The notes under the pieces are model-generated. The model saw nothing but the letters and a program-made list of their open reading frames with translations. It was not told the origin of the DNA and searched no databases. The translations under genes were made by a program, and so were the position numbers. A stretch of DNA of 53,303 nt. It comes from Bacteroidales bacterium. Its GTDB lineage: Bacteria; Bacteroidota; Bacteroidia; Bacteroidales; F082. Positions within the stretch are counted from its first letter, which is position 1. Each line of letters starts with the position of its first letter. Below are positions 13,343 to 38,892 of this stretch, piece after piece. The DNA lies in assembly GCA_017460915.1 (NCBI GenBank), contig JAFUAA010000018.1, positions 1-53,303 on the forward strand, read 5' to 3'.

Positions 13343-13354
13343 AAACAAGACAAG

Positions 13355-14831: not shown

Positions 14832-14834
14832 AAT

Positions 14835-24082: not shown

Positions 24083-24100
24083 AACGGATTGAATCGGATG

Positions 24101-24233: not shown

Positions 24234-24252
24234 CAGCAGTTTTTCAGTGGAT

Positions 24253-26076
24253 ATGGAAAAGAATAGTTTCAAAACGGGTTCGGTGAAGCCTTATCCGGAT
24301 ATTCCGCCCCGCACTTTCGACCTTTTGCCGAGGTTCGTTGAGAAATTCGGCAAGAAAAAGGTGATGTTTGCCTGCAAGGCGGACGGGGATTGGAAGAAAT
24401 ACAACGGTCGCGACTTCTTGAAGATGACGGATACCATCAGCCAAGGATTGATGGGCTTCGGCGTTGGGAAGGGCGATCGTGTGGCGGTGGTTTCCAACAA
24501 CTGTCCGCAATGGAATATGGTGGACTTTGCCGTGCAGCAGATTGGCGCTATCTTGGTGCCGATTTATCCTACTGTGCGCCAAAGCGATTTCGAGCATATA
24601 TTGGACCATGCCGAACCTAAGGTGATTTTTGTGGAAGGCTCGTTGCTTCACAAGAAGCTCGACGGCATCTTTAAGGCCATGCCGAATCCGCCCAAGGAGT
24701 TTGTTTTCAATCCCGTGGAGGGCTTGATGACGCTCCGTGGCTTGATGGTTTCGGTGAAGGTCGACAAGAAGAGCCTTGCCGCCTTGCAGGCGCACAAGGA
24801 TGCTGTTGCCCCCGAGGATGTGGCCACCATCATCTACACTTCAGGCACGCTGGGCACTCCCAAAGGCGTGATGCTGACCCACCATAACCTGATGAGCTGC
24901 ATTGCTTATTACGGACCGCATTACCCTGTGGCGAGTTCGCATAAGGTGGTGAGTTTCTTGCCTTTGTCGCATATCTATGAGCGTTCCGTGCTGTATACCC
25001 ACTTGTATCTTGGCAACTCGACCTATTATGTGGAGAACTTCGGCACCATCATGCGCGACATCGTTGATGTGAAACCAGAGCATTTTACCACGGTGCCTCG
25101 CGTTGTTGAAAAGGTGTATAACGGCATCATGCGCAAAGGCGACAAGTTGAAAGGCGTGAAGAAACGCATCTTCCATTGGGCATTCCAGTTGGCTGAACGC
25201 TACGATGAGACGGGACGCCACAACGGTAGGGCTTATCGTTTCAAGTTGCATATCGCCAACAGGTTGGTGTTCAGGGATGTGCGCAAGGCTTTTGGCGGGC
25301 GTTTGGAGTTCATCATCTCAGGCGGTGCCAGCTTGCAACCGCGTTTGGTGCGCCTTTTCGCCGCCATGAACATCCCCATCATCGAAGGTTATGGCCTGAC
25401 GGAGACCTCGCCTGTGATTTGCACCAATAGTCTGGCCATGAATGTGGTGAAGGCAGGATCCGTTGGCGTGCCTTGCGATAGTGTCCACATCAAGATTGAC
25501 CCGGAGACGGGCGAGATTCTGGTGGAAGGCTCTCCCGTGATGAAAGGCTATTACAAGGACGAGGAGCAGACTAAGATTGCCATTGACGAGGACGGATATT
25601 TCCACACGGGCGACATTGGCGAGTTTGACGAGGATGGCTTGCTGAAAATCACTGGCCGTATGAAGGAAATCTTCAAGGACTCGATGGGCAAATATATTTC
25701 TCCCGCCTTGATTGAGAACCGCTTTGCCGAGTCGCCGCTCATCAACAGCATCATGGTGGTGGGCGAAAACCAGAAGTTTGCCGCGGCATTGATTGTACCT
25801 AACTTCGAGAATTTGAAGACTTGGTGCGAAGAAAACCATATCGCCTACACCACCAATGCCGAAATCATCAAGGAGAAGAAGGTGAATGACCGCTACCGCA
25901 GGGAGGTGGATAGTTACAACAAGTACTTCGGCGATTTCGAGAAGGTGAAGCGCTTCGAGCTGGTCGACCGCGAGTGGACCATCGAGGAGGGCGAGATCAC
26001 CCCGAGCCTGAAGATCCGCCGCAAGGTCATCGCCGAGCATTTCAGCGATTTGATTGAAGGGATGTTTGCGGAGTGA
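24253..26076 (+). CDS. Long-chain fatty acid-CoA ligase
   Basis: The protein has 607 residues from the ATG at 24253; a GTG two codons earlier is possible. It activates long-chain fatty acids to acyl-CoA via acyl-AMP. The P-loop-like motif is TIIYTSGTLGTPKGVMLTHH near residues 193-212. It is followed by the linker motif FLPLSHIYERS and the A5 region IIEGYGLTETSPVIC. YFHTGDIGEFDEDGLLKITG and KEIFKDSMGKYISPALIENR form the C-terminal hinge. The class is the bacterial FadD/long-chain type without membrane helices. It marks the left border of the accessory region that follows. Confidence 0.93.
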   Translation: MEKNSFKTGSVKPYPDIPPRTFDLLPRFVEKFGKKKVMFACKADGDWKKYNGRDFLKMTDTISQGLMGFGVGKGDRVAVVSNNCPQWNMVDFAVQQIGAILVPIYPTVRQSDFEHILDHAEPKVIFVEGSLLHKKLDGIFKAMPNPPKEFVFNPVEGLMTLRGLMVSVKVDKKSLAALQAHKDAVAPEDVATIIYTSGTLGTPKGVMLTHHNLMSCIAYYGPHYPVASSHKVVSFLPLSHIYERSVLYTHLYLGNSTYYVENFGTIMRDIVDVKPEHFTTVPRVVEKVYNGIMRKGDKLKGVKKRIFHWAFQLAERYDETGRHNGRAYRFKLHIANRLVFRDVRKAFGGRLEFIISGGASLQPRLVRLFAAMNIPIIEGYGLTETSPVICTNSLAMNVVKAGSVGVPCDSVHIKIDPETGEILVEGSPVMKGYYKDEEQTKIAIDEDGYFHTGDIGEFDEDGLLKITGRMKEIFKDSMGKYISPALIENRFAESPLINSIMVVGENQKFAAALIVPNFENLKTWCEENHIAYTTNAEIIKEKKVNDRYRREVDSYNKYFGDFEKVKRFELVDREWTIEEGEITPSLKIRRKVIAEHFSDLIEGMFAE

Positions 26077-26197: not shown

Positions 26198-26219
26198 AAT
26201 CCAATTTGGATTGTTTTTT
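26198..26219 (+). terminator. Weak terminator after the acyl-CoA ligase
   Basis: AATCC-AATTT-GGATT is followed by G and six T. The stem is only 5 bp and A/T-rich, so efficiency is doubtful. A TATATTTG box at 26178-26185 lies just before it and could be an extra upstream promoter. Confidence 0.35.
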
Positions 26220-26238
26220 GAACTTTTTTATCGTTTTT

Positions 26239-26269
26239 TTTGTTTTGGAATGAAATTGTCGTATATTTG
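26239..26269 (+). promoter_or_regulatory. Promoter of the long-hairpin RNA and possibly the eight-gene operon
   Basis: TTTG at 26239-26242 and TATATTTG at 26262-26269 are separated by 19 bp, a textbook Bacteroidota -33/-7 arrangement. Transcription would begin near 26276. Confidence 0.65.
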
Positions 26270-26275
26270 CAACCT

Positions 26276-26514
26276 GAATTAACGGATTGTATCACTAAAA
26301 ACAAATAAAAGTAAGAAGATTTACACCTTATTAAATAGGCAAGCATAGAGACGAATTTCATCTGTTCTAAAATTTGGCGATTTTAATGGAGAGTAATCTT
26401 TGAGATTTAGTTCAATATGCTCACGCAAGGCGTGAGCTGGACTATTTCATCGAGATTACGGGTTACGCCAAATACCTAGAACAGCGGGAAACAGTCGAGT
26501 TTCACGCTTTTTTT
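26276..26514 (+). ncRNA. Candidate structured RNA: one long interrupted hairpin, 6S-like or operon leader
   Basis: Four nested stems make a 123-nt rod. CTGTTCTA (26362-26369) with ATTTGGCG (26372-26379) pairs with CGCCAAAT (26466-26473) and TAGAACAG (26477-26484). GTAATCT (26393-26399) pairs with AGATTAC (26453-26459). TAGTTCA (26408-26414) pairs with TGGACTA (26438-26444). The tip is GCTCACGC-AAG-GCGTGAGC (26419-26437). A promoter lies upstream and a terminator directly downstream, giving a discrete RNA of about 240 nt. The rod shape, its terminator and a TAATCTTTG stretch resembling a promoter -7 box in the stem recall 6S RNA. The alternative is a regulatory leader of the operon that starts 43 bp later. 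I cannot match it to a named family. Confidence 0.6.
26484..26514 (+). terminator. Terminator of the long-hairpin RNA
   Basis: GCG and GAAAC pair with GTTTC and CGC around AGTCGA, followed by seven T at 26508-26514. The first gene of the operon starts 43 bp later with no clear promoter between, so the operon probably depends on read-through. Confidence 0.65.
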
Positions 26515-26556
26515 GTACAATTGGATGATATGGTATAACAGATAAAACAAGTAGAA

Positions 26557-27876
26557 ATGAGAGATTTTTTGTTGCTAATTATCGTATGTTTGATGTTGAA
26601 TGGCTGCAATGCCAAGGACAACAGAAGAATTGAGAGTCAACAACAACGTAACGGAGTCCCCGAAATGCCAATGAAAGCACCCGGTATGAGCTATAATGGA
26701 AATGCCGATGAAACAAGCTATGCTACGAGCCAAACTTCAACTTCCTTCCAAGTCAATGTGTATTTGGAAAACTCTGGAAGTATGAATGGATATGTCGATG
26801 CTGGCAAAACAGATTTCCAGCACAATGTATTCAACTATCTTGATGATGTCGAACAGTGGCTTGGTTCGCAGCTTAATTTGTTTTTTATCAATAGCAAAAT
26901 CATTCCTAAAGGGAGCAATCTCAATGATTACATCAGCAAATTGACTCCGAATGATTTCAAGAGTTCGGGCGGAAATACATTGACAACAGATATAGCCGAT
27001 TTGTTCAGGCAGGTATTGGAGCAAGGAAATGATAGTGTCGTCTCCATTTTGATATCTGACTTTATCTTCTCTCCTGGAACGCAGAACAATCCAGAGGCTT
27101 ATTTGGGCGAACAGCAGGTGAAAATCAAGAGGGCTTTTGAGAATTACTTGAATCAAAATCCCAATCTTGCCGTTATAGTGTATCAGTTGTATTCAAATTT
27201 CAAGGGAACCTATTACGATTATTTGAATACACCCCACAAGGATTACGAAGGACGGAGACCTTATTATATATGGGTAATTGGACATCCGTTAAAAGTAGCC
27301 GAAATGAGAGTTGCCATTCCCGAAAACAAGTTTCTGCACAAAGTGGAGAACTTTTGGAGTATCACATCGCTTTCGCCAAATATTGAGAACTATGCCATAT
27401 TGCCAAACCCAAAGAAAGGTAGCTTTAACAAGTTGGGCAAAGATAGAATGAATAAAATGAAAAAAGACACTCAAGGGGAGTTCATGTTTACCATTGGAGC
27501 AGACTTTGGTGTGTTGGATTCGATTTTGGGAAACAACTATCTGCTTGACACGAATCATTATGCAAGGATTATCAACAAACATACAGCAGACGACTGGTAT
27601 ATTACCGTTTCGCCAAATACTATCCCGACATCTCCGGCAACGCATAATATCAGCCTATTTACAAAAGGAAATCTACCAAAAGGCGATTTTGAATTGGCCA
27701 TTTGCAGAAATAAACCGAAATGGGCAGATGAGTATTCCGACATGGACGACCGCGTATTAAGCGAGTCCAACCAAATGAAAACCTACGGGTTGCACATTAT
27801 CTTCGACGGTATTGTGCGAGCCTATTCAGCCAAGTGTGGCGACTACTATTCGAGTATGAATTTCAAAATGAATTGA
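26557..27876 (+). CDS. Operon gene 1: lipoprotein with VWA-like domain
   Basis: The protein has 439 residues. MRDFLLLIIVCLMLNGC is a lipoprotein signal with the cysteine at residue 17, followed by a polar linker. From about residue 62 the pattern is von Willebrand factor A-like. NVYLENSGSMNGYV at 67-80 sits where the DxSxS metal site belongs, with Glu in place of the first Asp. SSGGNTLTTDIADLF and VVSILISDFIFSPG supply the later threonine and aspartate positions. The C-terminal half from about 250 is of unknown fold. It should sit in the envelope, possibly as a metal-dependent adhesion or sensor subunit. It starts an eight-gene run with spacings of -4 to +7 bp. Confidence 0.75.
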   Translation: MRDFLLLIIVCLMLNGCNAKDNRRIESQQQRNGVPEMPMKAPGMSYNGNADETSYATSQTSTSFQVNVYLENSGSMNGYVDAGKTDFQHNVFNYLDDVEQWLGSQLNLFFINSKIIPKGSNLNDYISKLTPNDFKSSGGNTLTTDIADLFRQVLEQGNDSVVSILISDFIFSPGTQNNPEAYLGEQQVKIKRAFENYLNQNPNLAVIVYQLYSNFKGTYYDYLNTPHKDYEGRRPYYIWVIGHPLKVAEMRVAIPENKFLHKVENFWSITSLSPNIENYAILPNPKKGSFNKLGKDRMNKMKKDTQGEFMFTIGADFGVLDSILGNNYLLDTNHYARIINKHTADDWYITVSPNTIPTSPATHNISLFTKGNLPKGDFELAICRNKPKWADEYSDMDDRVLSESNQMKTYGLHIIFDGIVRAYSAKCGDYYSSMNFKMN

Positions 27877-27880
27877 CAAT

Positions 27881-28360
27881 ATGGACTTTTTTGACTTTTT
27901 CTACAGATGGAAATCCTTCTATGGTGCTCAATTGTTTGAACACATGAGAGGTTATGATGATGCACTTATGGATTACAATCCTGACCTCAATCAATTTCCT
28001 TCGCTATTCTTATGGACGATAGGAATTGTAGTGATTGTGTTCGTGTTGTATTATTACATCATCAACTCGCCAAGGCTTGCTAAATGGTGGCATTGGCTGA
28101 TTTCGTTGGCTATTGTTGCAGGCCTGACCTGTTGGGTCGGATTCAGAACCGTTAATGTTGAGGTAAGAAATCAGATTATTACGCCCAGCTTGCAACCATA
28201 CATTGGTCACAATAGCGCTTTGATGTTTGGTATTTACAATATGATGCTGGCGGTGCTATTCTACTTTATGTTCACTTTGCTTTTCAGAAGGTGGAGCAGG
28301 AACTGCAAGCACTCGCCGTGGGTATTATTGAAAACTAAATTAAACAATAAGAAGAAATGA
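27881..28360 (+). CDS. Operon gene 2: three-TM membrane protein
   Basis: The protein has 159 residues. The N-terminal 40 residues are soluble and aromatic-rich (MDFFDFFYRWKSFYGAQLFE). Three hydrophobic segments follow at about 43-62 (LFLWTIGIVVIVFVLYYYII), 70-88 (WHWLISLAIVAGLTCWVG) and 115-137 (FGIYNMMLAVLFYFMFTLLF), then a basic tail. I do not recognise the family. It lies 4 bp after the VWA-like lipoprotein gene, and its TGA overlaps the ATG of the tubulin-like gene, so all three are surely co-translated. A membrane anchor or coupling subunit is a reasonable guess. Confidence 0.7.
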   Translation: MDFFDFFYRWKSFYGAQLFEHMRGYDDALMDYNPDLNQFPSLFLWTIGIVVIVFVLYYYIINSPRLAKWWHWLISLAIVAGLTCWVGFRTVNVEVRNQIITPSLQPYIGHNSALMFGIYNMMLAVLFYFMFTLLFRRWSRNCKHSPWVLLKTKLNNKKK

Positions 28361-29790
28361 GCAAATTGTATGTTTTTGGCATAGGTGGAACCGGATCGCG
28401 AGTCCTGAAATCGTTGGTATTGCTGCTTGCTTCAGGTGTTGAATGCAAGATGGACATCGTTCCTGTCATCATCGACCCTGATGATTCTGCCGCAGACATG
28501 ACTCGTACAGTCGAACTGATGAAGAAATACAAGGCTATCCGCGACAACAAATACCTTGAGTTTGCCGATGCCAACAAAAACAGGTTCTTCAAGACAGAAT
28601 TGCAATCCGTCGATGGTATGCAGGATTTCATCTTTAGTTTAGAAAACACGCATGACGGTAAGTTCAAGGACTTTATAAAGATGGATCAGCTTGACCCTTC
28701 GTCGAAGGCACTTGTGAAGATGCTTTTTTCAGAAAAGAACTTGGAATCCGACATGAAGGTTGGCTTCAAAGGCAATCCTAACATTGGTAGCGTCGTGCTC
28801 AACCAGTTCGCGGATTCACAGGAATACAAGAACTTTGCCAATGGATTCGCAGATGATGGGAAAGACAGGATTTTTATCATCAGTTCAATTTTCGGCGGAA
28901 CAGGTGCAAGCGGTTTCCCATTACTGTTGAAAACGATTAGAAACGACAAGAACTCCCCAAAGTGGAAGGCTATCAGTGAATGCAAGATAGGGGCAGTAAC
29001 AGTGATGCCGTATTTTGGAGTGACCCAAGATGACAACAGTGAAGTTGATTCCTCAACTTTCATATCAAAGACAAAATCGGCATTAGCGTATTATGAGAAA
29101 AATATCAGCGGTAACAATTCGTTGGATGCGCTATATTACATTGGCGATTTGGTTACAGCGTCGTATGAGAATCGTGAAGGCGGTTCGGGACAAAGGAACG
29201 ATGCTCATTTCATCGAATTGTGTTCTGCCCTTGCCGTGTTGGATTTTGCCAATACGCCAAACGAAGCCTTTGATGGCGGCACAAAGCATTATGAGTATGG
29301 ACTGAAAGATGATAATAATGGAAACGAATTGACATTCAAGAATTTGTGTGAGAAAACCAAAAAAACCATCATGGTCCCATTGACGCAGTTCGTATTGATG
29401 AACAGGTATCTGAACTATGGTTTCGAGAAAGGTGGCAAATCCCAACCTTGGGCCATAGACAACCAATTGGACGACAACTTCTTCTCAGGTTACTTCTTCG
29501 AGCAGGTGCAGTCATTCCATCAGGATTTCCATCAATGGCTGGAAGAGATGGCAAGAAACAAGCGTGCATTCATGCCTTTTGATGCGGACAAGGTCAACCC
29601 TCTGTTTGAAATAGTCAATGGCTATAAGCCCAAGTCGAGTTTCCTCGGCAAAAAGAACTACGATTTGTTTGATGCTACACTTAATTCCAATTGGAAGGGC
29701 TGGAACAGTGCCGCTTCACGAGAGCAGAAATTCATGGAACTTTTCTATAGGGCAACAGAAAAATTGGTAAATGAAAAATACAACATGTAA
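28357..29790 (+). CDS. Operon gene 3: tubulin-like protein
   Basis: The protein has 477 residues. MSKLYVFGIGGTGSRVLKSL at the start is the nucleotide-binding loop of the tubulin_2-like families. DIVPVIIDPDDSAADMTRT follows as the next strand and loop. FIISSIFGGTGASGFPLLLK near residues 172-191 is the tubulin/FtsZ signature G-G-T-G-[ST]-G with one change (GGTGASG). The C-terminal 200 residues are specific to this protein, for example WAIDNQLDDNFFSGYFFEQV. It should bind and perhaps hydrolyse GTP and may polymerise. It is cytosolic, overlaps gene 2 by 4 bp and precedes the Hsp70/actin-like gene by 3 bp. Confidence 0.8.
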   Translation: MSKLYVFGIGGTGSRVLKSLVLLLASGVECKMDIVPVIIDPDDSAADMTRTVELMKKYKAIRDNKYLEFADANKNRFFKTELQSVDGMQDFIFSLENTHDGKFKDFIKMDQLDPSSKALVKMLFSEKNLESDMKVGFKGNPNIGSVVLNQFADSQEYKNFANGFADDGKDRIFIISSIFGGTGASGFPLLLKTIRNDKNSPKWKAISECKIGAVTVMPYFGVTQDDNSEVDSSTFISKTKSALAYYEKNISGNNSLDALYYIGDLVTASYENREGGSGQRNDAHFIELCSALAVLDFANTPNEAFDGGTKHYEYGLKDDNNGNELTFKNLCEKTKKTIMVPLTQFVLMNRYLNYGFEKGGKSQPWAIDNQLDDNFFSGYFFEQVQSFHQDFHQWLEEMARNKRAFMPFDADKVNPLFEIVNGYKPKSSFLGKKNYDLFDATLNSNWKGWNSAASREQKFMELFYRATEKLVNEKYNM

Positions 29791-29793
29791 ACT

Positions 29794-32700
29794 ATGAGCA
29801 AGATATTGAGAATATACGAGGAAGGTGGAGAGACTTCCGACGATTGGGGCAAGGCAAAGAAATATGGCTCCGATGTCATAAAGAAAATCCAAGACCCAGC
29901 AGGACTCACTGCAAAAAAGGAAATAACATCCATTCCATCTCCGTTTGCAAGAATCGACTTGGCCAAGACCGCTTTCAAGTATGTGGTGGATTCGGGTAAT
30001 CTTGACGGCAATACCATATATCATAAAATCGTTTCCGACTGCTTTGATGTTGGTGAGATTTTCTTCAACTTTGACAAGCTTACCTATGAAGATTCCGTGA
30101 CGCACAAAAACAAGCCGATGTTTGAGATTGTAGTGTGGGATAGGCAAAACGAAATTGAAATCCTGAAAAAGAGCAAACTGAAAGAGCATCGTATTCTTGG
30201 CGAGACATTGGATATGTATCTCAATCAAGATGCCAAGACATATAATTTCGATGCCTTGAAGAGATTATATCTGTTGAAATATATTGGTCCAGGACACAAA
30301 CCGATCGATATTGTTGGTGCCACATCACCAGTGACCATTTTCTTCAGCACTGCCAATGACTTGAGTCGGCTGTCGCAGCTTATCAGTTTTGGCGGAAACT
30401 ACCGCCCCTTTGACAATGTATTTGCAGCGTTGCACAAGAGAGATTTCAAGTTTCAACGATACTTGTATGCGTTGCGAGAATCTTTCCCGCAATTCCCTTC
30501 GCTGTTCCCTGAAATCCACGCATACCTTGAAAAGAATCATGAGTATCTCTCCGATGCAGAAAAAGAGGAAGTCCGTTCGTTGGATGCCAATTCCATAGAA
30601 GAGTTAGATGAGCTGTCTTTGATTGGCAATGTGGTGAACGTAAACGATATGCCACTTAGGAAATCTCCAGTAAATCAAGGTGGCATCGAGAGTGATTTTG
30701 CCATAAGTTCAAAGGTGTATGTTGGGAAGAAGCCTCTCGTGCTTCCCGTTGAAGCAGGCGACAAGTATGTGAGCCTGAAATATGTCAATGACAACTGGAA
30801 TAAGAACTATCATGCCCCATATTTCGATACAAGGTCGTTAGAGGATAGGGTATTACCAGAGACGAGCGAGAAACACCCGTATCTGACTATCGGTGATTTC
30901 CTGAGTCCTTCGATAGTTTCCATGCCATACCAATTGAATGTTGACTCGTTTTTTGACGGGAATAGCAACGATGACAACCAAACATTCTTGTTGCCTTTGA
31001 CGGAGAGGTTCTTCGAGTATTTCAATGTAGAAGATTTGATGGGAACGGTGAAAGATGGTCATCAATCAAGAAAGATGGTGGAACTGAAGCCTGTTGGCGA
31101 TGGCGCGGTTTTGGTTGTTCTTAGGATACCCATCCAAAAGTCTCGTGTGATTGAATACGAGAGAATGTATTACAAGAGCGCGGTCGATGATGGCAAATCA
31201 GGAGTGGTTGTCGAGAGACGTTTTGGTTTGGGCGTATTCCCATTGGTCGATTTTGGTAGCATGGGACAAACGGCACCATATTACCGTATCGCGTTTTTCG
31301 GCAAAACAAAAGGTGATGTATTGAGATTTGTAAGCGGAAAGAATGTGGCTGATTATAAGGCACACGTTGTCAGGCGTGATGCCGACAGGGTATGTAGCAT
31401 TGAGTCATACGTTGTCGAAAAGACGTTTGACCACATCGAGTTTCTGTTTGATGACATCAGCAATGTGATAGTTCCTCGTTTCTATAAGCCTGGTGGCGGT
31501 TCACGGTTCGTCTTCGCCATTGATTTTGGCACGACAAACACTCACATCGAATACACAAAAGACGACCAAGGTAGGACTATGCCTTTCACAATAGGTAAAG
31601 AAGACCAGCAAATGAAACGAATGCACAAAAGCTATTCTGCCGCTGGCGATCGCGATATAGAATATGCCTTTGACGATGCATTCGTTCCTGATACCATCGG
31701 CAACGCAGACCAATATGCTTTCCCGATGAGGACGGTGTTTGCCGAAAACAAGAAAATCAACTATAGCACTCCGACATACACCTTGGCCGATGGAAACATA
31801 CCTTTCAGATACGGCAAGTCGCAAGACCCCATTTACAACAACAAGCCAGTGACCGATCTGAAATGGTCGAACGACAAGGACAATGCCAAGCGCGTCGAAA
31901 TGTATCTCGAGAACATCTTCTTGCTTATTAGGAACAAGGTGTTACTCAATGATGGTGACTTGCAGGCCACGCGAATTGTTTGGTTCTACCCAGCCAGCAT
32001 GACTCGGGCGCGGTGCAATGAGTTTAAGTCTATTTGGAAGAGACTCTACGACCGTTATTTTGGCGGTGCGGGGTTGGAGATGATGTCGGAGTCCATCGCT
32101 CCTTATTACTATTACAAGCAGAAGAAAGGTGCTATGTCGAATGTGGTGACCATCGACATTGGAGGCGGCACTACTGATGTGTTTATCGTTGAAGATGGGA
32201 TGCAAGGTTCAAAAAGAATGCTTTCGTCTTTCCGCTTTGCAGCCAATGCGATTTTCGGAGACGGGTATAATTTTCCGTCAAACGAGAATGGGTTTGTCAA
32301 CGCTTTCAAGAGTGAGGCGGAGAAGGTTTTTGAGAATAACCAGGATAAAGATGGCATTCCTGATTTACAAAATGCGTATAAAGCGATTCTCGAGTCAGAG
32401 AAGTCGACCGATGTCGTCAACTTCTTCTTCTCTTTAGCAGGCAACAGGGTTATTAGTGACAATCAGATTCCCTATAACTACTTGGAAACCTTGTCGCGCG
32501 ATGAGGACTTCAAGTATGTTTTCATCGTGTTCTATGGCGCCATCTTGTATTATGTGGCCACTATGATGAAATCTAAGGGTTACAAAATGCCGCAAACACT
32601 TGCTTTCAGCGGGAATGGCTCGCGAACCTTGTTCGCCCTTTCTGATGACGACAAGAGCATAGCATGTTTCGCTTCCAAGATTTTCGAGAAAGTGTATGGA

Positions 32701-33192
32701 GAGCAATACAGTAGCTCTTCCTTGAAAGTTGTTTTTGACAAAAATCCGAAACTCGCTACCTGTAAAGGAGGCATTATTCCGAAAGAATCCATTGAGTTTG
32801 ATACCATAGACGAAATGAAAACTTCGCTACTTGGAACGGATGCCGATACTTTTGCCTCAGAAATCAAGTACAATGCACTTGATGAGAGCCACCTGAAGGA
32901 AGTCGCCAAAATGGTATCAACCTTTGTTGACGAATTGTTTGAAATCGGCAATGAGAAGAGCTTCTTTGCAAATACCTTCAACGCAAGTAGGAAGTTTAGC
33001 GCCGAGGCAAAGGAATGTTGCAAGAAGGACCTCCAAGAATATACAAAGCAGGGCTTGGAAGCCAAGCAGAAAGACCTTGACGCATGGGGGGCTGGCAGAG
33101 ATGTGGAGATAGAGGAGACTTTGTTCTTCTATCCGCTTGTCGCTGTTCTCAATAGATTGGCCTTGGAAATCTATAACCTTAAAAACCAATAA
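29794..33192 (+). CDS. Operon gene 4: large protein with C-terminal Hsp70/actin-type ATPase
   Basis: The protein has 1132 residues. The first 560 have no motif I recognise and are probably beta-rich; they include LSRLSQLISFGGNYRPFDNVF and LPETSEKHPYLTIGDFLSPS. From about 570 the actin/Hsp70/sugar-kinase fold is clear. FVFAIDFGTTNTHIEY at about 572-587 is phosphate motif 1, NVVTIDIGGGTTDVFIVEDG at about 782-801 is phosphate motif 2, and LAFSGNGSRTLFAL at about 935-948 is the adenosine motif. A large insertion separates motifs 1 and 2. There are no membrane segments, so it is cytosolic. It lies between the tubulin-like and membrane coiled-coil genes with 3-bp gaps, which argues for one complex. 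Confidence 0.8.
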   Translation: MSKILRIYEEGGETSDDWGKAKKYGSDVIKKIQDPAGLTAKKEITSIPSPFARIDLAKTAFKYVVDSGNLDGNTIYHKIVSDCFDVGEIFFNFDKLTYEDSVTHKNKPMFEIVVWDRQNEIEILKKSKLKEHRILGETLDMYLNQDAKTYNFDALKRLYLLKYIGPGHKPIDIVGATSPVTIFFSTANDLSRLSQLISFGGNYRPFDNVFAALHKRDFKFQRYLYALRESFPQFPSLFPEIHAYLEKNHEYLSDAEKEEVRSLDANSIEELDELSLIGNVVNVNDMPLRKSPVNQGGIESDFAISSKVYVGKKPLVLPVEAGDKYVSLKYVNDNWNKNYHAPYFDTRSLEDRVLPETSEKHPYLTIGDFLSPSIVSMPYQLNVDSFFDGNSNDDNQTFLLPLTERFFEYFNVEDLMGTVKDGHQSRKMVELKPVGDGAVLVVLRIPIQKSRVIEYERMYYKSAVDDGKSGVVVERRFGLGVFPLVDFGSMGQTAPYYRIAFFGKTKGDVLRFVSGKNVADYKAHVVRRDADRVCSIESYVVEKTFDHIEFLFDDISNVIVPRFYKPGGGSRFVFAIDFGTTNTHIEYTKDDQGRTMPFTIGKEDQQMKRMHKSYSAAGDRDIEYAFDDAFVPDTIGNADQYAFPMRTVFAENKKINYSTPTYTLADGNIPFRYGKSQDPIYNNKPVTDLKWSNDKDNAKRVEMYLENIFLLIRNKVLLNDGDLQATRIVWFYPASMTRARCNEFKSIWKRLYDRYFGGAGLEMMSESIAPYYYYKQKKGAMSNVVTIDIGGGTTDVFIVEDGMQGSKRMLSSFRFAANAIFGDGYNFPSNENGFVNAFKSEAEKVFENNQDKDGIPDLQNAYKAILESEKSTDVVNFFFSLAGNRVISDNQIPYNYLETLSRDEDFKYVFIVFYGAILYYVATMMKSKGYKMPQTLAFSGNGSRTLFALSDDDKSIACFASKIFEKVYGEQYSSSSLKVVFDKNPKLATCKGGIIPKESIEFDTIDEMKTSLLGTDADTFASEIKYNALDESHLKEVAKMVSTFVDELFEIGNEKSFFANTFNASRKFSAEAKECCKKDLQEYTKQGLEAKQKDLDAWGAGRDVEIEETLFFYPLVAVLNRLALEIYNLKNQ

Positions 33193-33195
33193 GCC

Positions 33196-33825
33196 ATGAT
33201 GACATACTTGCCTTTGATTTTGAGTGCCATAGCAATAATCCTTTCTGTTCTTGTTCCTATTTTGCATAACCACAATAAAGACCATTGGGATGAAAAAGAA
33301 ATCAGGGATAAGGTGGTAAAGGTAGTGAACGAAAGTGTAAGGGTTGAAAAAATCATTTCTGACAAAGTGCAGAGTAGGCTAACAAACAAAGAACAGCCAA
33401 AGAAGACTATGGTCTCAAAGGATGAAGTTGTTGAGGAAGTGCTTGAACGATTAAAGCCAGAGATTAATAAGATGGTAAGCGAGGCTTTGCATCAAGTGTC
33501 TCGGCAAACAGAAAATGTTGGCGCAAAAGAGGAATCAAAACCGAATCGAAAAAGGTATGGTTTCTATGGAAAGGATTCGTTTGTGCTGACCGAAACGCCA
33601 ACCGATACCACGGTTTATTGCTTTACGACAGACCCGAAGAATGAGCAAAAAGTTTGGTTCGATGTGCATGATGTGCAAAAGGTTATACAGGACAAGAACC
33701 TCCTTCTAGACTGCTGTACCATTGAAGGCGGTGGCAGCGGGTTGCTGACATTGGAAAAAGGCCTCGCTGTTTGCAAGGATGGAAAGTGGATGTTGGAAAA
33801 GAAATTGAAACTTAAATTCAGTTGA
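33196..33825 (+). CDS. Operon gene 5: N-terminally anchored coiled-coil protein
   Basis: The protein has 209 residues; a second ATG directly follows the first. One transmembrane segment lies at about 4-24 (YLPLILSAIAIILSVLVPIL). A charged coiled-coil-prone region follows at about 30-110 (DEKEIRDKVVKVVNESVRVE, VEEVLERLKPEINKMVSEAL). The C-terminal domain of about 85 residues contains KRYGFYGKDSFVLTETPTD, VWFDVHDVQKVI and GLAVCKDGKWMLEKKLKLKF. It probably faces the cytosol as a linker between the membrane and the NTPases. The family is unknown to me. Spacing is 3 bp on the left and 7 bp on the right. Confidence 0.65.
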   Translation: MMTYLPLILSAIAIILSVLVPILHNHNKDHWDEKEIRDKVVKVVNESVRVEKIISDKVQSRLTNKEQPKKTMVSKDEVVEEVLERLKPEINKMVSEALHQVSRQTENVGAKEESKPNRKRYGFYGKDSFVLTETPTDTTVYCFTTDPKNEQKVWFDVHDVQKVIQDKNLLLDCCTIEGGGSGLLTLEKGLAVCKDGKWMLEKKLKLKFS

Positions 33826-33832
33826 TAATTAT

Positions 33833-35503
33833 ATGTGGAAGTTGTTGATTTTCGTTGGCATTTGCATTGTGTTTCAAGGACTTGCATTTGCCGACACGCT
33901 TAAGAAAAGAATTCAGTTAAGGAAGATTTTTCCAAAACGATCTGATCAGGCAATGTCCCTTGTTGACAGTGGGGATGACGGCAAACAGATTTTGGTTAGA
34001 AAAAACGTTCATTCCAGCAAGGTGTTTGATGAAATCATCAAGACAATAAACCGTTACTTGAGCCATAACAAAGGTTCGGCTGACTATGCCATTTTGAAAG
34101 ACATTACTGACCGTAATTGTGATGCAGTAGAGGCACAGATTGAGGCAACCGCTTCCATACCGGTTTATATTGGTTTGTGCGGTACGCTTATAGGCATTGT
34201 GCTTGGAGTTGCTGTCTTAGGCTTTAGAGGAGGAATTGATGCACTATTTGATACGACACCAGTTGTTTTGGTTGAGTCACTTTCCGAAGCAAACACCGAG
34301 TTGCGGACAGAAGGTTCGAAAGTAAAAACGAATGACGGTAATGTTTATGAGTTTTCCAGCGGCCAATGGAATCTTTATAAAAATCCAGGAGAAGAAGGAA
34401 TTAAGAACCTACTGCAAGGCGTTGGTATAGCGATGCTCACCACCTTGTTTGGTGTTTTATTTACCATCGTTGGAGCATGGTCTTCAAAAAGGTCGTCAAG
34501 GGTAAATGAAGAAAAGAAGAACGGTTTCTTAAGTTGGTTGCAGGCGGAGTTGTTGCCTCAAATGAGCAACGACCTGGGTCAGGTTATCTTCCAAATGCAA
34601 CGCAACCTAACTAAGTTCAATAACACATTTGCGGCCAACACGAGCCAGCTTGATAGCGTATTAAAGGGCATAAACACGACTTATGAGGATCAGACGCGAT
34701 TGTTAAAAGCTGTTGAAAAACTCAAGATTGATGAGATAGCAACCGCAAATATCAGAGTTCTTCAGGAGTTAAAAGAATGTACAGATGAGATAGAGGAACT
34801 TGGGTTACTCGTTTCCAATTCCACAGAATACATTACCAAAGTAGATAACTTGAACGGTTTGCTTTCGAGCCATTTGGACAGGACACGACTCATTGAGAAC
34901 ATGGGGCAATTCTTCAGGGAAGAAGTGACGCAAATTGAACAGCGGAAACAGGCCATTGCCAACTCGACGGCCGATATTGACGCAAATATGCAACGCGCCT
35001 TTGGACAGTTGCGCGATCATACCGACAGAGAATATCAGCAGCTTGGCGATGCTTTGGCCAATAAACACGCCGAATTCCTTAGAGCAATTGAAGCGCAACA
35101 GGAAGCCTTGAACAGGAAGTTGGAGGAAACCTCACAACTGGTTCAGGAACTCAAAAACCTTACCGCCGTCAAAGAGAGCATGGAGCAACTTGCCCTAGCT
35201 GAGCAAAGTCAAAACGCCAAGATTGAAACACTTGTAAATGCTTCGGCGGAACAAAACGAAAAAATCAAAGCTCTTGTGGAGTGCGTCAACAAAATTGCAG
35301 CTACGGCTACAAATCAAAACACCAGATTGGACCAACTGCAAGCGGCGGTTGTCAAGTCAAGTGAGAAAACCGTCGAAGTGAATGTCAAATCACCAGTGGT
35401 CAAGACCAAAGTCCCGTTGTGGAAAGCAGTCGTAGAGGTAATCATTTGCTTGGCTGCTATGGGCTTTTTAGGACTGCAGGTTTATACATTGTTCTTCAAA
35501 TGA
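33833..35503 (+). CDS. Operon gene 6: MotA/TolQ/ExbB-like channel with long coiled coil (ZorA-like)
   Basis: The protein has 556 residues. An N-terminal membrane segment (LLIFVGICIVFQGLAF) is followed by a soluble part. Then comes SIPVYIGLCGTLIGIVLGVAVLG at about 108-130 and LLQGVGIAMLTTLFGVLFTIVGAW at about 193-216. These two helices with GLxGTxxGI and GIxxAMxTTxxG patterns are the hallmark of the MotA/TolQ/ExbB proton-channel fold. About 60 residues separate them. From about 270 to 500 lies a long heptad-like coiled coil. A final hydrophobic segment at 531-553 (VVEVIICLAAMGFLGLQVYT) ends the chain, unlike Zorya ZorA, whose tail ends in the cytosol. Its stop overlaps the MotB-like gene by 4 bp. 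Confidence 0.78.
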   Translation: MWKLLIFVGICIVFQGLAFADTLKKRIQLRKIFPKRSDQAMSLVDSGDDGKQILVRKNVHSSKVFDEIIKTINRYLSHNKGSADYAILKDITDRNCDAVEAQIEATASIPVYIGLCGTLIGIVLGVAVLGFRGGIDALFDTTPVVLVESLSEANTELRTEGSKVKTNDGNVYEFSSGQWNLYKNPGEEGIKNLLQGVGIAMLTTLFGVLFTIVGAWSSKRSSRVNEEKKNGFLSWLQAELLPQMSNDLGQVIFQMQRNLTKFNNTFAANTSQLDSVLKGINTTYEDQTRLLKAVEKLKIDEIATANIRVLQELKECTDEIEELGLLVSNSTEYITKVDNLNGLLSSHLDRTRLIENMGQFFREEVTQIEQRKQAIANSTADIDANMQRAFGQLRDHTDREYQQLGDALANKHAEFLRAIEAQQEALNRKLEETSQLVQELKNLTAVKESMEQLALAEQSQNAKIETLVNASAEQNEKIKALVECVNKIAATATNQNTRLDQLQAAVVKSSEKTVEVNVKSPVVKTKVPLWKAVVEVIICLAAMGFLGLQVYTLFFK

Positions 35504-36162
35504 GCAAGAAGAAAGAATCATATTTTTGGACGAGTTATTCCGACTTGATGACGAACCTATTTTTCGTCATGCTGATGCTGTTTGTGCTCACAATTGCCAT
35601 TTTGCGTAGGCAAATGGTTAGGATTGAAGAAGAAAGACGCGCCACCCAAGCACAGTTGGACAAAATCAAGGAATTGGAAGAGTCGATAAAGAACATTGAC
35701 ACAACCTATTTCGTTTATAATGCTGAGTATAAGACGCATATCTTACGAACCCAAGTGAAATTCGAGAGAGGGAAGGCAGATATGGCCGTATTGTCTGAAG
35801 GAACCAAGCATGAGTTGTTTGCTGTTAGGGATATGCTTAGAGATTCTTTGGCTTCCTTTTGCCAGAAAACGCCAAACGCAACCTACCTTTTGATAATTGA
35901 AGGCCAAGCTTCGACGGATAATTATAGATATAATAATGAGTTGAGTTACAACAGGGCCTTGTCGTTATTCAGGTTTTGGTTTGATAACGAGGAAAATCCC
36001 AACCTGCGTTTTTTCGATTTGCCATGTGAAGTGATTATTGCGGGTGCAGGATGCATGGATGGTAAGCCACGAGCATACGAAAACGAGGACAACCAACGTT
36101 TTCTTATCAGAATTCTTCCCAAACCGGGAATGATTGGAAATGTAAAAGCAACAATGAATTAG
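35500..36162 (+). CDS. Operon gene 7: MotB/OmpA-like stator partner (ZorB-like)
   Basis: The protein has 220 residues from the ATG at 35500; the longer open frame from 35419 only shadows the end of gene 6. YFWTSYSDLMTNLFFVMLML at 8-27 is a MotB-type N-terminus, with Asp15 at the position of the proton-carrying aspartate at the foot of the single membrane helix. A short coiled coil follows, then an OmpA/MotB-like peptidoglycan-binding domain. TYLLIIEGQASTDNYRYNN and LSYNRALSLFRFWF correspond to the I-x-GHTD...N...LS..RA...L pattern, with GHTD changed to GQAS. Paired with gene 6 it should form an ion-driven, wall-anchored motor or stator unit. Confidence 0.8.
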   Translation: MSKKKESYFWTSYSDLMTNLFFVMLMLFVLTIAILRRQMVRIEEERRATQAQLDKIKELEESIKNIDTTYFVYNAEYKTHILRTQVKFERGKADMAVLSEGTKHELFAVRDMLRDSLASFCQKTPNATYLLIIEGQASTDNYRYNNELSYNRALSLFRFWFDNEENPNLRFFDLPCEVIIAGAGCMDGKPRAYENEDNQRFLIRILPKPGMIGNVKATMN

Positions 36163-36166
36163 AGCG

Positions 36167-36979
36167 ATGAAGGTAATTAAGTGTTTCGGAGTGTTGGAAA
36201 TGGCAATATTTTTTTTGGCAATGTTGTCATGCATCCCGCATCGTCCTTCTGCGTCAGTTGATGTTTTAGAACAAACGTTTGAGCAATCCTATTGTTCTAT
36301 AGAGTTACCTCATGAATCATCATCTGAAATTCTTGTTTTCCACACCGCTTACACTGTCTCCTTCAATTCCCAAACCCTTATCGCTAACTGGGTTGCCTAC
36401 GAACTCACTGCTGAAGAAACCAACGGCCCATGGTCGCGAAAGGGGCTTCGGTTTGTGGCTGACCCAGATTGCAAAAGCAAACAGGCCGACAACGATGACT
36501 ATCGCAACTCTGGTTATACGCGTGGCCATCTTGCCCCGGCTGGCGATATGAAATGGGACAGCATGGCGATGGTGGAGAGTTTTTATTTTACCAATTGTTT
36601 TCCTCAGGATAAGGAACTCAATAATGGACGATGGAACCAGTTGGAAATGAAGACTCGAGATTTGGCTCGGGATTATGGACGAGTTTATGTCGTTTGTGGC
36701 CCTATATTCACCAATGAAGATACTCTGCACATTGGCCATAACGGCGTGGCTGTGCCAGATGCCTGTTTTAAGGCTCTGCTTATTTCGACAGACAAAGGCT
36801 ATTCGGCAATTGCGTTCTTGATGCGCAATGGGGGTGAAAACCGTTCGGTTAAGGAGTGTGCCATTACGGTGGATGAATTGGAAACGATACTTGATATAGA
36901 TTTGTTCTGCAACTTACCTGATGAAGAAGAAGAAAAGGTGGAAAGTCAGGTGATGTGGAATGATTGGAGGCTGAAGTAA
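36167..36979 (+). CDS. Operon gene 8: exported DNA/RNA non-specific endonuclease
   Basis: The protein has 270 residues. MKVIKCFGVLEMAIFFLAML followed by SC at residues 21-22 is a secretion signal, probably of the lipoprotein kind, although the lipobox is not ideal. The body is of the NUC/EndoG beta-beta-alpha-metal family. NSGYTRGHLAPAGDM near residues 112-126 carries the catalytic histidine; the usual DRGH reads TRGH. TNCFPQDKELNNGRWNQLE supplies the metal-binding asparagine. VYVVCGPIF and IAFLMRN are core strands. It starts 4 bp after the MotB-like gene, so it belongs to the operon and should act outside the cytosol, possibly on incoming DNA. That role is inferred from context. Confidence 0.85.
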   Translation: MKVIKCFGVLEMAIFFLAMLSCIPHRPSASVDVLEQTFEQSYCSIELPHESSSEILVFHTAYTVSFNSQTLIANWVAYELTAEETNGPWSRKGLRFVADPDCKSKQADNDDYRNSGYTRGHLAPAGDMKWDSMAMVESFYFTNCFPQDKELNNGRWNQLEMKTRDLARDYGRVYVVCGPIFTNEDTLHIGHNGVAVPDACFKALLISTDKGYSAIAFLMRNGGENRSVKECAITVDELETILDIDLFCNLPDEEEEKVESQVMWNDWRLK

Positions 36980-37258: not shown

Positions 37259-38191
37259 ATGTCAGAACTCCCCGCATTATTTTCCGATCTCGCCCTGATT
37301 CTCGTCACGGCAGGCGTCACTACCGTATTGTTCAAGAGGTTGAAGCAACCTTTGGTCTTGGGGTGAGTACGGCTATGGATGGAAAGGAATTGATGTTCAG
37401 TGTGTTGCGGCTCGTCTTTTTCCTTTTGGTTTGGTACATTGGCGGTGTTTTCCTTATCCCGACCATCCTGAAATGGTCGCGCAAATTCATGTCGGAGGAG
37501 ACGCTCACCGTCTTTGCCGTGGGCTTGTGCTTCCTGATGGTTTGGCTGGCCAACAAAGCGGGTTTCTCGTCGGCTTTGGGCGCGTTCATTATGGGTTCTA
37601 TCTTGGCCGAAACGCTTGAGGCTGAGCTGATTCACAAACTCACCATGCCGATTAAGAACCTGTTTGGGGCCGTGTTTTTCGTCTCGGTCGGTATGATGGT
37701 CAATCCGGCCATCTTGGTACAATATTGGTGGCAGATTTTGGTAATTACCTTAGTTGTGGTGACGCTCAAATCGTTGAGTTCGGGCGTGGGCATGCTACTC
37801 TCGGGCGACAGCCTTCACAACGCCGTGCGTGCGGGAATGTGCTTCGGGCAAATCGGCGAGTTTTCGTTCATCATCGCCACGGTGGGTATGAGTTTCGGCG
37901 TCATCGACGACTTTTTGTATCCCATCATCGTCTCGGTGTCTATCATCACGACTTTCCTCACTCCTTATTTGATTAAAGGCGGTGAGCCGTTGTTCCATTC
38001 GATTGATGGGAAGGTGCCCGCAAGTTGGACTTCGTTCTTCGGAAACAAGGAAAAGAGCCTGAAAGAGAAGAGCGACAATCGGGTGACAATGAAGGCGTTC
38101 GTCCTCAGTCAGGTGCAACACATGGTGCTGTATGCGGCCATTTTGCTGGCCTTGACGCTGGTGAGTTTCTCCCTACTTGAGCCTGTGATGG
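37259..38191 (+). pseudogene. CPA2 cation:proton antiporter remnant, internal deletion and lost 3' half
   Basis: The gene opens MSELPALFSDLALILVTAG and runs to KRLKQPLVLG, then a TGA at about 37365. From there another frame reads MDGKELMFSVLRLVFFLLVW and goes on through SEETLTVFAVGLCFLMVWLA and GQIGEFSFIIATVGMSFGVI to about 38190. Compared with the intact paralogue at 39092, about 145 residues are missing between residue 35 and residue 180, with a frame change. Everything after about residue 420 of 776 is also gone. The similarity breaks off where the truncated abiEii gene begins on the other strand. A product with all transport helices is impossible. Confidence 0.85.
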
Positions 38192-38314
38192 GTATAGCAG
38201 GCGCTCGTTGAAGTAACGAGCCAACAGATACATATATTTGTAGCCTGATGTGTTCATCAGATTGAGTAACTTGGTCTTGACCGACTTGCCGTAGTTCTTG
38301 ATAGGTTTTGTCAT
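38192..38314 (-). pseudogene. AbiEii toxin, N-terminal fragment
   Basis: From the ATG at 38314 the minus strand reads MTKPIKNYGKSVKTKLLNLM and continues to YMYLLARYFNERLLY. This is the conserved N-terminus of AbiEii-type nucleotidyltransferase toxins. After 41 residues it runs into DNA complementary to the antiporter remnant, so the catalytic core is missing. Its ATG overlaps the TGA of the abiEi-type gene by 3 bp, the normal operon arrangement. Confidence 0.75.
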
Positions 38315-38892
38315 TCTATTGCAATTTCAAGGTAGTTATTCATCACTTTTGTAAGGCGCAGCTTTTGGGCGTATTCGGAGAGACGGCTGAGATTGCGCTC
38401 CTTCAGGCGGGCGTAGCTTCTAATCACTTCGGCGCACACATCCAGTCCCACTTTATTGCGGTATTTCACGGCATCGCATACGCTACGCTCCAAATCAGTC
38501 ATACACACCTGAAAACCAGAAATCTCTTTCTGCTCGATGCCGAATTCCATGTTTTCCTTCTTCCAGTAATAGAGGTTGATGGGCAATTTTTCGGGAAGCA
38601 CCACTTTTCGTTTGGCTTCGATGGCGATGCAAAAGGCGGGTGGAATGGTGGTGCAAAGCTGATGGTGCATCCATGCGGTGTAAAGGCAGACGATGCCACC
38701 GGGCACGATGCGCTCCACATCGATCATGGTGTTGAGCATGGCCGTCGGCTCGGCATACACGCCATGACGCAGACGCACTATGTTACCATTACTAACCGCT
38801 CTGCGCAGCCGCTCATACTCAGCCCTCCCCTCCAAATCCTTTGTGGAGATGACGCCTCCTTTAGTCGCTATTTGTTCAGAGACCGTTTCCAT
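38311..38892 (-). CDS. AbiEi-type antitoxin / transcriptional regulator (orphaned)
   Basis: The protein has 193 residues from METVSEQIATKGGVISTKDL at 38892; the longer open frame is not needed because a -7 box lies 20 bp upstream. The N-terminal winged helix is SEQIATKGGVISTKDLEGRA and YERLRRAVSNGNIVRLRHGVYA, the signature of AbiEi family antitoxins. The C-terminal domain contains GGIVCLYTAWMHHQLCTTIP and MTDLERSVCDAVKYRNKVGLDV. In type IV systems the antitoxin represses the operon and counters the nucleotidyltransferase. Here the toxin gene is reduced to 41 codons, so only the regulator could still function. Confidence 0.85.
   Translation of the reverse strand: METVSEQIATKGGVISTKDLEGRAEYERLRRAVSNGNIVRLRHGVYAEPTAMLNTMIDVERIVPGGIVCLYTAWMHHQLCTTIPPAFCIAIEAKRKVVLPEKLPINLYYWKKENMEFGIEQKEISGFQVCMTDLERSVCDAVKYRNKVGLDVCAEVIRSYARLKERNLSRLSEYAQKLRLTKVMNNYLEIAIE

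What the first reader, a model, noticed from the sequence alone, without database searches (positions are those of the whole stretch)
26557..36979. Eight-gene operon joining a MotA/MotB-like motor, tubulin-like and Hsp70/actin-like NTPases, a VWA lipoprotein and an exported nuclease
Seen: eight same-strand genes with gaps of 7 bp or less or 4-bp overlaps. Motifs identify a tubulin-like protein (GGTGASG), an Hsp70/actin fold (DFGTTN, DIGGGTTD), a TolQ/MotA-like channel, a MotB/OmpA-like partner with Asp15, a VWA-like lipoprotein and a NUC-type endonuclease. Known: Zorya defence systems couple a MotAB-like ZorAB motor to the cytosolic effectors ZorC and ZorD. Inference: this is a different, perhaps undescribed system, in which cytosolic filament-type NTPases act through an ion-driven envelope complex on a periplasmic or surface nuclease. 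It sits in a locus full of broken toxin-antitoxin and antiporter genes, as defence genes often do.
Basis: partly seen in the sequence, partly recalled or inferred. Interest (0 to 1): 0.92.

Follow-up and report, generated by a model that had tools for sequence, protein, structure and literature searches.

The report
Bacterial envelope motor with swappable enzymes
A set of linked bacterial genes joins two cell-skeleton-like proteins to a probable ion-driven motor in the cell envelope and often ends in an interchangeable exported DNA- or protein-cutting enzyme; the set recurs across many Bacteroidota and may be an unstudied way of fending off viruses or foreign DNA, though this has not been tested.

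Summary
The eight-gene operon is real and not a one-off. In 80 loci fetched by similarity to the tubulin-like gene alone, the order lipoprotein, 3-TM protein, FtsZ-like, 1,130-aa actin-fold ATPase, anchored protein, ExbB/MotA-like, ZorB-like recurs: 48 of 60 loci assessable at both ends hold genes 1-4, 6 and 7 in order. Behind the core lies an exchangeable slot: 45 of 64 loci hold exported hydrolases of five unrelated kinds (trypsin-like, retropepsin-like, NUC, SNase, DNase I-like), against none in 502 kb upstream and none in 150 kb of control stretches. The window's nuclease is closest to those of congener operons whose tubulin is only 32-34% identical. The operon sits in a hotspot that is empty in seven congeners and holds known or candidate defence genes in two others. 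It is not Zorya: no ZorC/D/E/F match, ZorB cut-off not met. Best reading: a Bacteroidota variant of the predicted FtsZl1/vWA systems, in which FtsZ/FtsA-like NTPases gate a ZorAB-like motor that deploys envelope enzymes, probably against invaders.

The parts
26557..27876 (+). g1: putative VWA-like lipoprotein, 439 aa (ExSxSM motif, lipobox Cys17)
   Evidence: VWA fold not statistically supported
27881..28360 (+). g2: small membrane protein, 159 aa, three hydrophobic segments (43-61, 73-91, 113-131)
   Evidence: homologue in 69 of 70 assessable loci
28357..29790 (+). g3: FtsZ/tubulin-superfamily protein of the Tubulin_2 (FtsZl1) type, 477 aa
29794..33192 (+). g4: 1132-aa protein; C-terminal half an actin/FtsA-like ATPase with intact motifs, N-terminal half unknown
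33196..33825 (+). g5: membrane-anchored protein, 209 aa, variable N-terminal part and conserved C-terminal stretch
33833..35503 (+). g6: MotA/TolQ/ExbB/ZorA-like subunit, 556 aa, with long coiled-coil tail and an extra C-terminal hydrophobic segment (532-550)
35500..36162 (+). g7: ZorB/MotB-like subunit, 220 aa, one TM with Asp15 and an OmpA-like C-terminal domain
36167..36979 (+). g8: exported (lipobox-like) NUC-family DNA/RNA non-specific endonuclease, 270 aa; occupant of the exchangeable effector slot
24247..26076 (+). left edge of the hotspot: ligase-like gene (name by eye); homologue in 36 of 36 genus genomes, 82-96% identical in 11 congeners and 69-70% in two more
37259..38202 (+). remnant of the first of two tandem antiporter-like genes (right edge of the hotspot)
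38192..38883 (-). AbiEi-like stretch and AbiEii fragment, related to the complete AbiE pair of the congener G018 hotspot
39092..41422 (+). second antiporter-like gene, open throughout

Best explanation
A modular trans-envelope machine, most likely an anti-invader (phage or incoming DNA) system. Shown from sequence: a conserved core of a Tubulin_2-type protein, an FtsA-like ATPase, a three-TM protein, an anchored protein, an ExbB/MotA-like and a ZorB-like pair and a lipoprotein, often followed by an exchangeable exported hydrolase. Inferred: g6 and g7 form an ion-driven 5:2 complex in the inner membrane; the g6 coiled-coil tail meets the cytosolic g3/g4 NTPases, which assemble or disassemble on a signal and so gate the motor; the motor acts through the peptidoglycan-binding g7 domain and the g1 lipoprotein to release or position the lipoprotein nuclease and/or protease, which destroys incoming DNA and protein in the periplasm or at the surface. 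In the window the weapon is the NUC nuclease g8.
For: Genes 1-4, 6 and 7 in order in 48 of 60 loci assessable at both ends, most gaps 30 bp or less. g7 profile matches solved type I ZorB (8VVN) at 2e-14 and 8QYD at 7e-8; PADLOC ZorB1 2e-14. g6 N-terminal profile aligns to 19 ExbB/TolQ proteins at 82% (full length 73%), against 0.3% or less for three other families. g4 ATPase half aligns to FtsA at 95.6% and MreB at 85.8%. Effector slot: 45 of 64 loci; trypsin-like and retropepsin-like never in one locus (24 and 16 loci); no hit in 502 kb upstream or 150 kb of control stretches; 48 of 50 motif-bearing effectors lipobox-like. At least 11 changes of effector type among 42 loci on the g4 tree, and a nuclease/core mismatch in the window's genus. 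Patchy presence: 7 of 36 genus genomes, 13 of 395 across the phylum with g3. Hotspot: 7 empty sites and 4 occupied ones with different cargo; in two of these, GmrSD_N genes, Schlafen AlbA_2, an SNF2 helicase near DpdE/ZorD, and AbiE.
Against: No functional data of any kind. PADLOC has no match at E 1 for five of the eight proteins and only weak ones for g5 and g6. Almost no sign of carriage by mobile elements: g3 in 0 of 50,697 phage records, g4 in 1 of 72,556 plasmid records (a 1.77-Mb replicon), 3 loci in IMG/VR. The g4 tree keeps families largely together (30 changes against 47.3 shuffled, minimum 25). 19 of 64 loci have no such hydrolase, and the effector profiles were built from the very genes found there. 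The hotspot genes scanned were 10 of about 37 inserted ORFs, chosen by eye, and several of the ten have no PADLOC match. Defence-gene enrichment around the 80 loci was not tested; the hotspot evidence is from one genus, many of whose genomes are incomplete. In the PDB search g6 matches lactose permease as well as it matches ZorA.
Confidence: 0.45

Rival explanations
1. Membrane-remodelling or vesicle machine, as proposed for FtsZl1 operons: the FtsZ/FtsA-like pair shapes the inner membrane, the ion-driven pair links it to peptidoglycan and outer membrane, and the exported hydrolases are cargo or trim the envelope.
For: g3 is of the Tubulin_2 type and g1 may be a vWA protein, the two hallmarks of FtsZl1 operons, some of which also hold OmpA-like genes; FtsA-like partner.
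Against: Exchange between unrelated nucleases and proteases and defence genes at the same hotspot fit conflict better; nucleases have no obvious use in shaping membranes (inference).
Confidence: 0.22
2. Weapon or secretion device against competing bacteria or grazers: the motor energises release of surface lipoprotein proteases and nucleases.
For: Exported, interchangeable hydrolases; many locus titles name gut and rumen Bacteroidales.
Against: No immunity genes or secretion-system parts were recognised among the up to three downstream genes per locus that were looked at; lipoprotein leaders suggest tethering rather than shedding (inference).
Confidence: 0.12
3. Envelope quality control or stress response: an alternative Tol-like apparatus whose proteases clear damaged periplasmic proteins, with nucleases as passengers.
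For: TolQ/ExbB-like and OmpA/MotB-like pair; the trypsin-like proteases resemble HtrA-type enzymes (by eye).
Against: Patchy presence within one genus (7 of 36) and alternation with nucleases are unlike housekeeping.
Confidence: 0.12
4. DNA uptake or nutrient scavenging: surface nuclease plus energised envelope complex.
For: NUC, SNase and DNase I-like enzymes with export leaders.
Against: No competence protein was recognised in the operon; of 45 loci with a hydrolase, 24 have a protease and no nuclease (17 trypsin-like, 7 retropepsin-like).
Confidence: 0.05

Closest known systems
FtsZl1 (Tubulin_2, PF13809) / vWA / OmpA predicted membrane-remodelling operons (Makarova and Koonin 2010, PMC2875224)
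   Same: Tubulin_2-type protein as centre, possible vWA protein, OmpA-like protein, several TM proteins; function unknown in both.
   Different: Here no P-loop GTPase or protein kinase match; instead a 1,130-aa FtsA-like ATPase, an ExbB/MotA-like subunit with coiled-coil tail, and exchangeable exported proteases/nucleases. The words Hsp70, MotA and Bacteroidetes do not occur in its main text; its supplements were not open to me.
Zorya anti-phage systems (types I-III)
   Same: ZorB-like subunit with conserved Asp and OmpA-like domain; ExbB/MotA-like subunit with long tail.
   Different: No ZorC, ZorD, ZorE or ZorF match in the operon; ZorB equivalog score 33.5 against a cut-off of 400; the effectors here carry export leaders, whereas Zorya's are cytosolic (recalled).
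GTPase-centric conflict systems with tubulin, HSP70 and vWA components (Kaur et al. 2020, PMC7159879)
   Same: Tubulin, actin/Hsp70-fold and vWA genes named as parts of predicted conflict systems with variable effectors.
   Different: No DO-GTPase seen here; motor pair and exported hydrolase slot. Its main text has no MotA, flagellar, proton channel or Zorya.
TolQR / ExbBD / MotAB ion-driven motors
   Same: g6-g7 pair architecture and conserved TM residues.
   Different: No TolA/TonB-like or flagellar partner recognised; tied to FtsZ/FtsA-like NTPases.

Membership tests
FtsZl1 / Tubulin_2 (PF13809) system | central protein matches Tubulin_2 | tested here: inconclusive
   25.4 bits against a 27-bit cut-off, E 1.1e-5; 10 of 13 aligned sequences match at E 0.1 or better, best 3.2e-9
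FtsZl1 / Tubulin_2 (PF13809) system | vWA-domain gene in the operon | tested here: inconclusive
   ExSxSM...SD pattern in the right register but hhalign probability 1.7-2.7%; 1 of 38 sequences hits VWA_CoxE at 0.0016; no PDB hit at E 10
FtsZl1 / Tubulin_2 (PF13809) system | OmpA-like protein (several operons) | tested here: met
   g7: Pfam OmpA only 0.018 alone, but the profile matches ZorB/MotB and OmpA-domain chains
FtsZl1 / Tubulin_2 (PF13809) system | diverged P-loop GTPase or protein kinase partner (frequent, not universal) | tested here: not met
   no such Pfam match among the eight proteins at E 1
Zorya | ZorB at the family's curated cut-off | tested here: not met
   33.5 bits against 400
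Zorya | ZorC/ZorD or ZorE or ZorF effector genes | tested here: not met
   no PADLOC match to them in g1-g8 at E 1
Zorya | 5:2 ion-conducting complex | not testable with these tools
   structure prediction switched off
MotA/TolQ/ExbB superfamily (g6) | conserved TM hairpin | tested here: inconclusive
   hhalign to 19 ExbB/TolQ proteins 82%; Pfam MotA_ExbB in 11 of 41 sequences at E 0.01, best 3.1e-5; PDB ZorA 0.0043 but lactose permease 0.0038
MotB/ZorB (g7) | TM Asp plus OmpA-like domain | tested here: met
   Asp15 invariant 9 of 9; 8VVN ZorB 2e-14 over profile positions 5-211 of 221
GTPase-centric tubulin/HSP70 conflict systems | DO-GTPase with GAP1 | tested here: inconclusive
   no P-loop GTPase Pfam match; neither DO-GTPase nor GAP1 was searched with a model of its own
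DNA/RNA non-specific endonuclease (PF01223) | score over Pfam cut-off and RGH motif | tested here: met
   174.1 bits against 23; TRGHLAP present; activity not tested

The most novel reading that the evidence does not exclude
A new kind of envelope immunity widespread in Bacteroidota: an FtsZ/FtsA-like cytoskeletal switch in the cytosol gates a ZorAB-like ion motor that arms envelope lipoprotein proteases and nucleases, so that invading DNA and injection proteins are destroyed before they reach the cytosol; the enzymes are swapped in a two-slot cassette (one protease type, one nuclease type).
Probability: 0.35. Interest if true: 0.93.

Novelty: new variant of a known kind. Interest (0 to 1): 0.8.

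Why it matters
The paper searches made here (open-licence PMC only, capped listings) listed no study of it. If it defends, it would be an immune layer acting outside the cytosol, with clear handles for test: one Asp, two NTPase sites, and enzyme active sites. If it does not, it still gives the FtsZl1 systems predicted in 2010 a partner set that makes their function testable.

Tried and rejected
Zorya proper: rejected, see membership test. Duplicate copy in this genome: rejected, the second copy is a redundant contig. Carriage by phages or plasmids: looked for with g3 or g4, almost nothing. Hsp70 as the closest kin of g4: Pfam lists eight families for 13 sequences at E 0.1 and HSP70 is not among them; FtsA (7 of 13), Ppx-GppA (4), EutA (4), SrfB (3) and four single hits are. 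VWA for g1: PDB, Pfam and hhalign failed to prove it; kept as a motif-level guess. The first hhalign run used badly cut reference proteins and was replaced. The g4 profile's 178 of 395 'hits' in the phylum are mostly short matches in frames of FtsA or MreB length and were not counted as the system; 9 of 395 have E below 1e-70. A test of defence-gene enrichment around all loci was planned (control stretches) but not run with PADLOC, because an alignment scan gives no per-protein counts; the stretches served as the control instead; they were placed at round-number positions of my choosing. The single-sequence genome scan confirmed no relative. Rows dropped: one 1,097-aa second downstream gene of L069 was left out of the 84-protein set; of the empty-site stretches fetched only G021 was read gene by gene, the other six rest on match coordinates; L242 was fetched but not read. 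Literature: eight searches; for those with more papers than listed only the listed 20 titles and abstract starts were seen. Papers seen as passages: PMC2875224 (with outline and section 6), PMC7159879, PMC11890865 (with part 1 of section 6), PMC12505986, PMC9871819.
Full report
What is there. The window holds eight tightly packed + strand genes at 26557-36979 as described. Gene 7 most likely starts at ATG 35500, overlapping gene 6 by 4 bp. The second copy found in the genome (contig C50) is a fully contained duplicate contig with one mismatch, so there is one operon.

Gene identities. g8 is a NUC-type endonuclease well over the Pfam cut-off (174 against 23 bits). g3 belongs to the FtsZ/tubulin superfamily and is nearest the Tubulin_2 type; alone it is just below cut-off, but of 13 aligned sequences 12 hit Tubulin (best 4.8e-6) and 10 hit Tubulin_2 (best 3.2e-9). 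g4 has the actin-fold ATPase motifs, with key residues invariant in 41 of 41 sequences; its C-terminal half is closest to FtsA (95.6% probability, 10 FtsA proteins), then MreB (85.8%), with under 1% for ExbB and VWA_2 proteins. Hsp70 was not compared by hhalign; Pfam listed no HSP70 hit. g7 matches type I ZorB of PDB 8VVN at 2e-14 over nearly its length and 8QYD at 7e-8; that 8VVN and 8VVI are Shewanella type I and Sulfuricurvum type II ZorAB was read in PMC11890865 (passages; part 1 of section 6). g6 is ExbB/TolQ-like at 82% hhalign probability for its N-terminal part and 73% full length, with weak Pfam support (11 of 41 sequences at E 0.01); ZorA is among its PDB hits at 0.0043, but lactose permease scores alike (0.0038), so the fold is likely and not proven. 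g1 has an ExSxSM...SD pattern and a lipobox; the VWA fold is a guess. g5 has one hydrophobic segment and a conserved C-terminal stretch. g2 has three hydrophobic segments.

Recurrence. Profiles grown from the window proteins and first relatives were then run over their + strand ORFs. With enough sequence to judge, g1 lies upstream of g3 in 70 of 70, g2 in 69 of 70; downstream, g4 in 75 of 75, g5 in 54 of 63, g6 in 58 of 63, g7 in 51 of 63, g8 in only 7 of 63; 48 of 60 loci assessable at both ends hold g1-g4, g6 and g7 in order, some with duplicated genes. Five of 63 lack g6 (L085, L118, L122, L124, L125). So the machine is g1-g7 and the nuclease is an accessory. Distribution is patchy: 7 of 36 genomes of the window's genus, itself included (within 10 of 60 relatives; many are incomplete), and 13 of 395 genomes drawn across the phylum with g3; g4 with E below 1e-70 in 9 of 395. 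A few records carry titles outside Bacteroidota (L062, L065, L094, L097, L105); some may be mis-binned and this was not tested.

The effector slot. The gene after the core is the surprise. Of 80 loci, 50 have a same-strand gene within 120 bp of the last core gene, and 40 of those 50 first genes carry trypsin-like (20), retropepsin-like (15), NUC (4) or SNase (1) motifs. In the 84 proteins scanned by Pfam (80 of 81 first and second downstream genes, the window's g8 and three others), 21 match Trypsin_2, 15 gag-asp_proteas, 8 Endonuclease_NS, 7 SNase, 3 Exo_endo_phos. A profile scan found such hydrolases within 3 kb on the same strand in 45 of 64 loci with at least 1 kb after the core: 24 trypsin-like, 16 retropepsin-like, 9 SNase, 8 NUC and 7 DNase I-like ORFs; the two protease types never share a locus (24 and 16 loci), while a nuclease often follows a protease; 66 hits in 178 kb downstream of all 80 cores, 0 in 502 kb upstream, 0 in 150 kb of control stretches from genomes that hold the operon. 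The profiles were built from these genes, so the test shows that they are not common background, not that the list of families is complete; 19 of 64 loci have none. Of 50 motif-bearing effectors, 48 have a lipobox-like leader and all 50 an N-terminal hydrophobic stretch.

Swapping. On a g4 tree (quick method, with warnings about long branches) the first effector type needs at least 11 changes among 42 labelled loci with four types, minimum 3. In the window the exchange is visible directly: its nuclease is 60-63% identical to those of three congener operons (L030, L031, L033; grouped with 99/98 support) whose g3 is only 32-34% identical to the window's, whereas operons with the closest g3 (58-63%; L049, L050, L051, L059) carry nucleases at 40-48%. 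Five other congener rows are themselves split on the g4 tree (3 changes, all forced by starred branches). Overall, families are still clustered on that tree (30 changes, shuffled mean 47.3, minimum 25), so inheritance is mixed.

Hotspot. In the genus the ligase-like gene left of the operon and two tandem antiporter-like genes to its right are neighbours. In seven congeners (G021, G031, G024, G007 with both antiporters; G029, G030, G019 with one) the matches lie about 60-120 bp apart, an empty site (G021 read gene by gene); G024 and G019 carry an operon elsewhere. Four genomes are occupied: the window; G022 with another version of the operon between the antiporters; G033 with a canonical Tubulin_2 gene (6e-52) and, between the antiporters, two GmrSD_N genes and a Schlafen AlbA_2 gene; G018 with an SNF2 helicase near DpdE/ZorD (2e-153, 1e-119), an AbiEi/AbiEii pair, and a kinase-VWA-PP2C set with its own exported-looking NUC nuclease (2e-50). 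Only 10 proteins per library, chosen by eye out of about 37 inserted ORFs of G018 and G033, were scanned; the tubulin, nuclease, VWA and PP2C proteins have no PADLOC match. In the remaining genus genomes the genes lie on different contigs or the matches are too diverged to judge. Beyond this genus, context was not tested.

Comparison with the known. Makarova and Koonin (PMC2875224; outline, section 6 and passages read) predicted membrane-remodelling operons of FtsZl1 with vWA, GTPases, kinases and OmpA-like proteins. Kaur et al. (PMC7159879; passages read) predicted GTPase-centric conflict systems with tubulin, HSP70 and vWA genes. Neither main text contains the word MotA; the supplements were not open to me, so this operon may be listed there. 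A 2023 study (PMC9871819; passages) calls the Tubulin_2 group FtsZ-like, sparse and divergent. The 2025 survey of MotAB kin (PMC12505986; passages) mentions Zorya and phage defence but has no 'tubulin'. The eight searches listed no paper describing this set, as far as titles and abstract starts tell. I therefore file it as a new variant of the FtsZl1 kind that probably works like Zorya at its motor, and not as a member of Zorya.

How it probably works, and how sure. Shown: architecture, conservation, effector exchange, hotspot. Inferred: ion-driven motor, filaments, gating, attack on invaders in the envelope. The strongest arguments for conflict are the exchange of unrelated exported hydrolases on one conserved core and the shared hotspot; the strongest against are the near absence from mobile-element collections, the family-wise clustering, the loci without any hydrolase, and the lack of any experiment. 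Structure prediction, which could have tested g1 and g6, was switched off.

Noticed in passing
L208 (G018:C10:28500-44000), 7745-13667 minus strand: In a congener's hotspot, an ion-channel-like gene (by eye), a NUC nuclease with export-like leader, a protein kinase, a VWA protein, a PP2C phosphatase and a repeat-like protein lie in one tight run; the nuclease family is thus shared by two different operon types at one site.
   Followed up: partly
L211 (G033:C25:46001-62000), 8079-13287 minus strand: A canonical 1030-aa Tubulin_2 protein (6e-52) lies with a lipoprotein-like and a zinc-ribbon-like protein (by eye) at the same hotspot in the genome with the closest ligase (96%).
   Followed up: partly
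L209 238-2806 minus strand and the gene across L208/L209 (G018): Genes that by eye look like a radical-SAM His-Xaa-Ser-type peptide system lie in the same hotspot insert.
   Followed up: no
G000 contig C50, 1-7870 (L003): Redundant contig contained in the window (23520-31389, one mismatch): assembly duplicate, not a second operon.
   Followed up: yes
window 33833-35503 (g6), residues 532-550: The coiled-coil tail of g6 ends in an extra hydrophobic segment; in the 10-row alignment only L028 shares it, by eye.
   Followed up: no
L046 about 7877-8455 and L047 (reverse orientation) about 11938-15014: More distant tubulin loci are followed by proteins that by eye are TerD-like, and a P-type ATPase-like gene lies near the tubulin genes of L033 and L047: a possible link to Ter stress systems.
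   Followed up: no
L117:18301-19392: A single downstream protein appears by eye to fuse an SNase-like and a trypsin-like domain, joining the two effector slots.
   Followed up: no
L240 (IMG/VR contig), 815-8116: A shortened operon (g1-g4 plus one gene) lies beside opposite-strand genes on a contig classed as viral; L241 carries the longer version with a g8-type nuclease; L242 was not read.
   Followed up: partly
window about 26430-26540: A short stretch upstream of g1 reads by eye as a protein remnant, perhaps the scar of an earlier insertion.
   Followed up: no
L042 5250-6488 and 6490-8067: One relative has its tubulin gene in two frames, and no g4 between it and shortened g6- and g7-like ORFs.
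   Followed up: no
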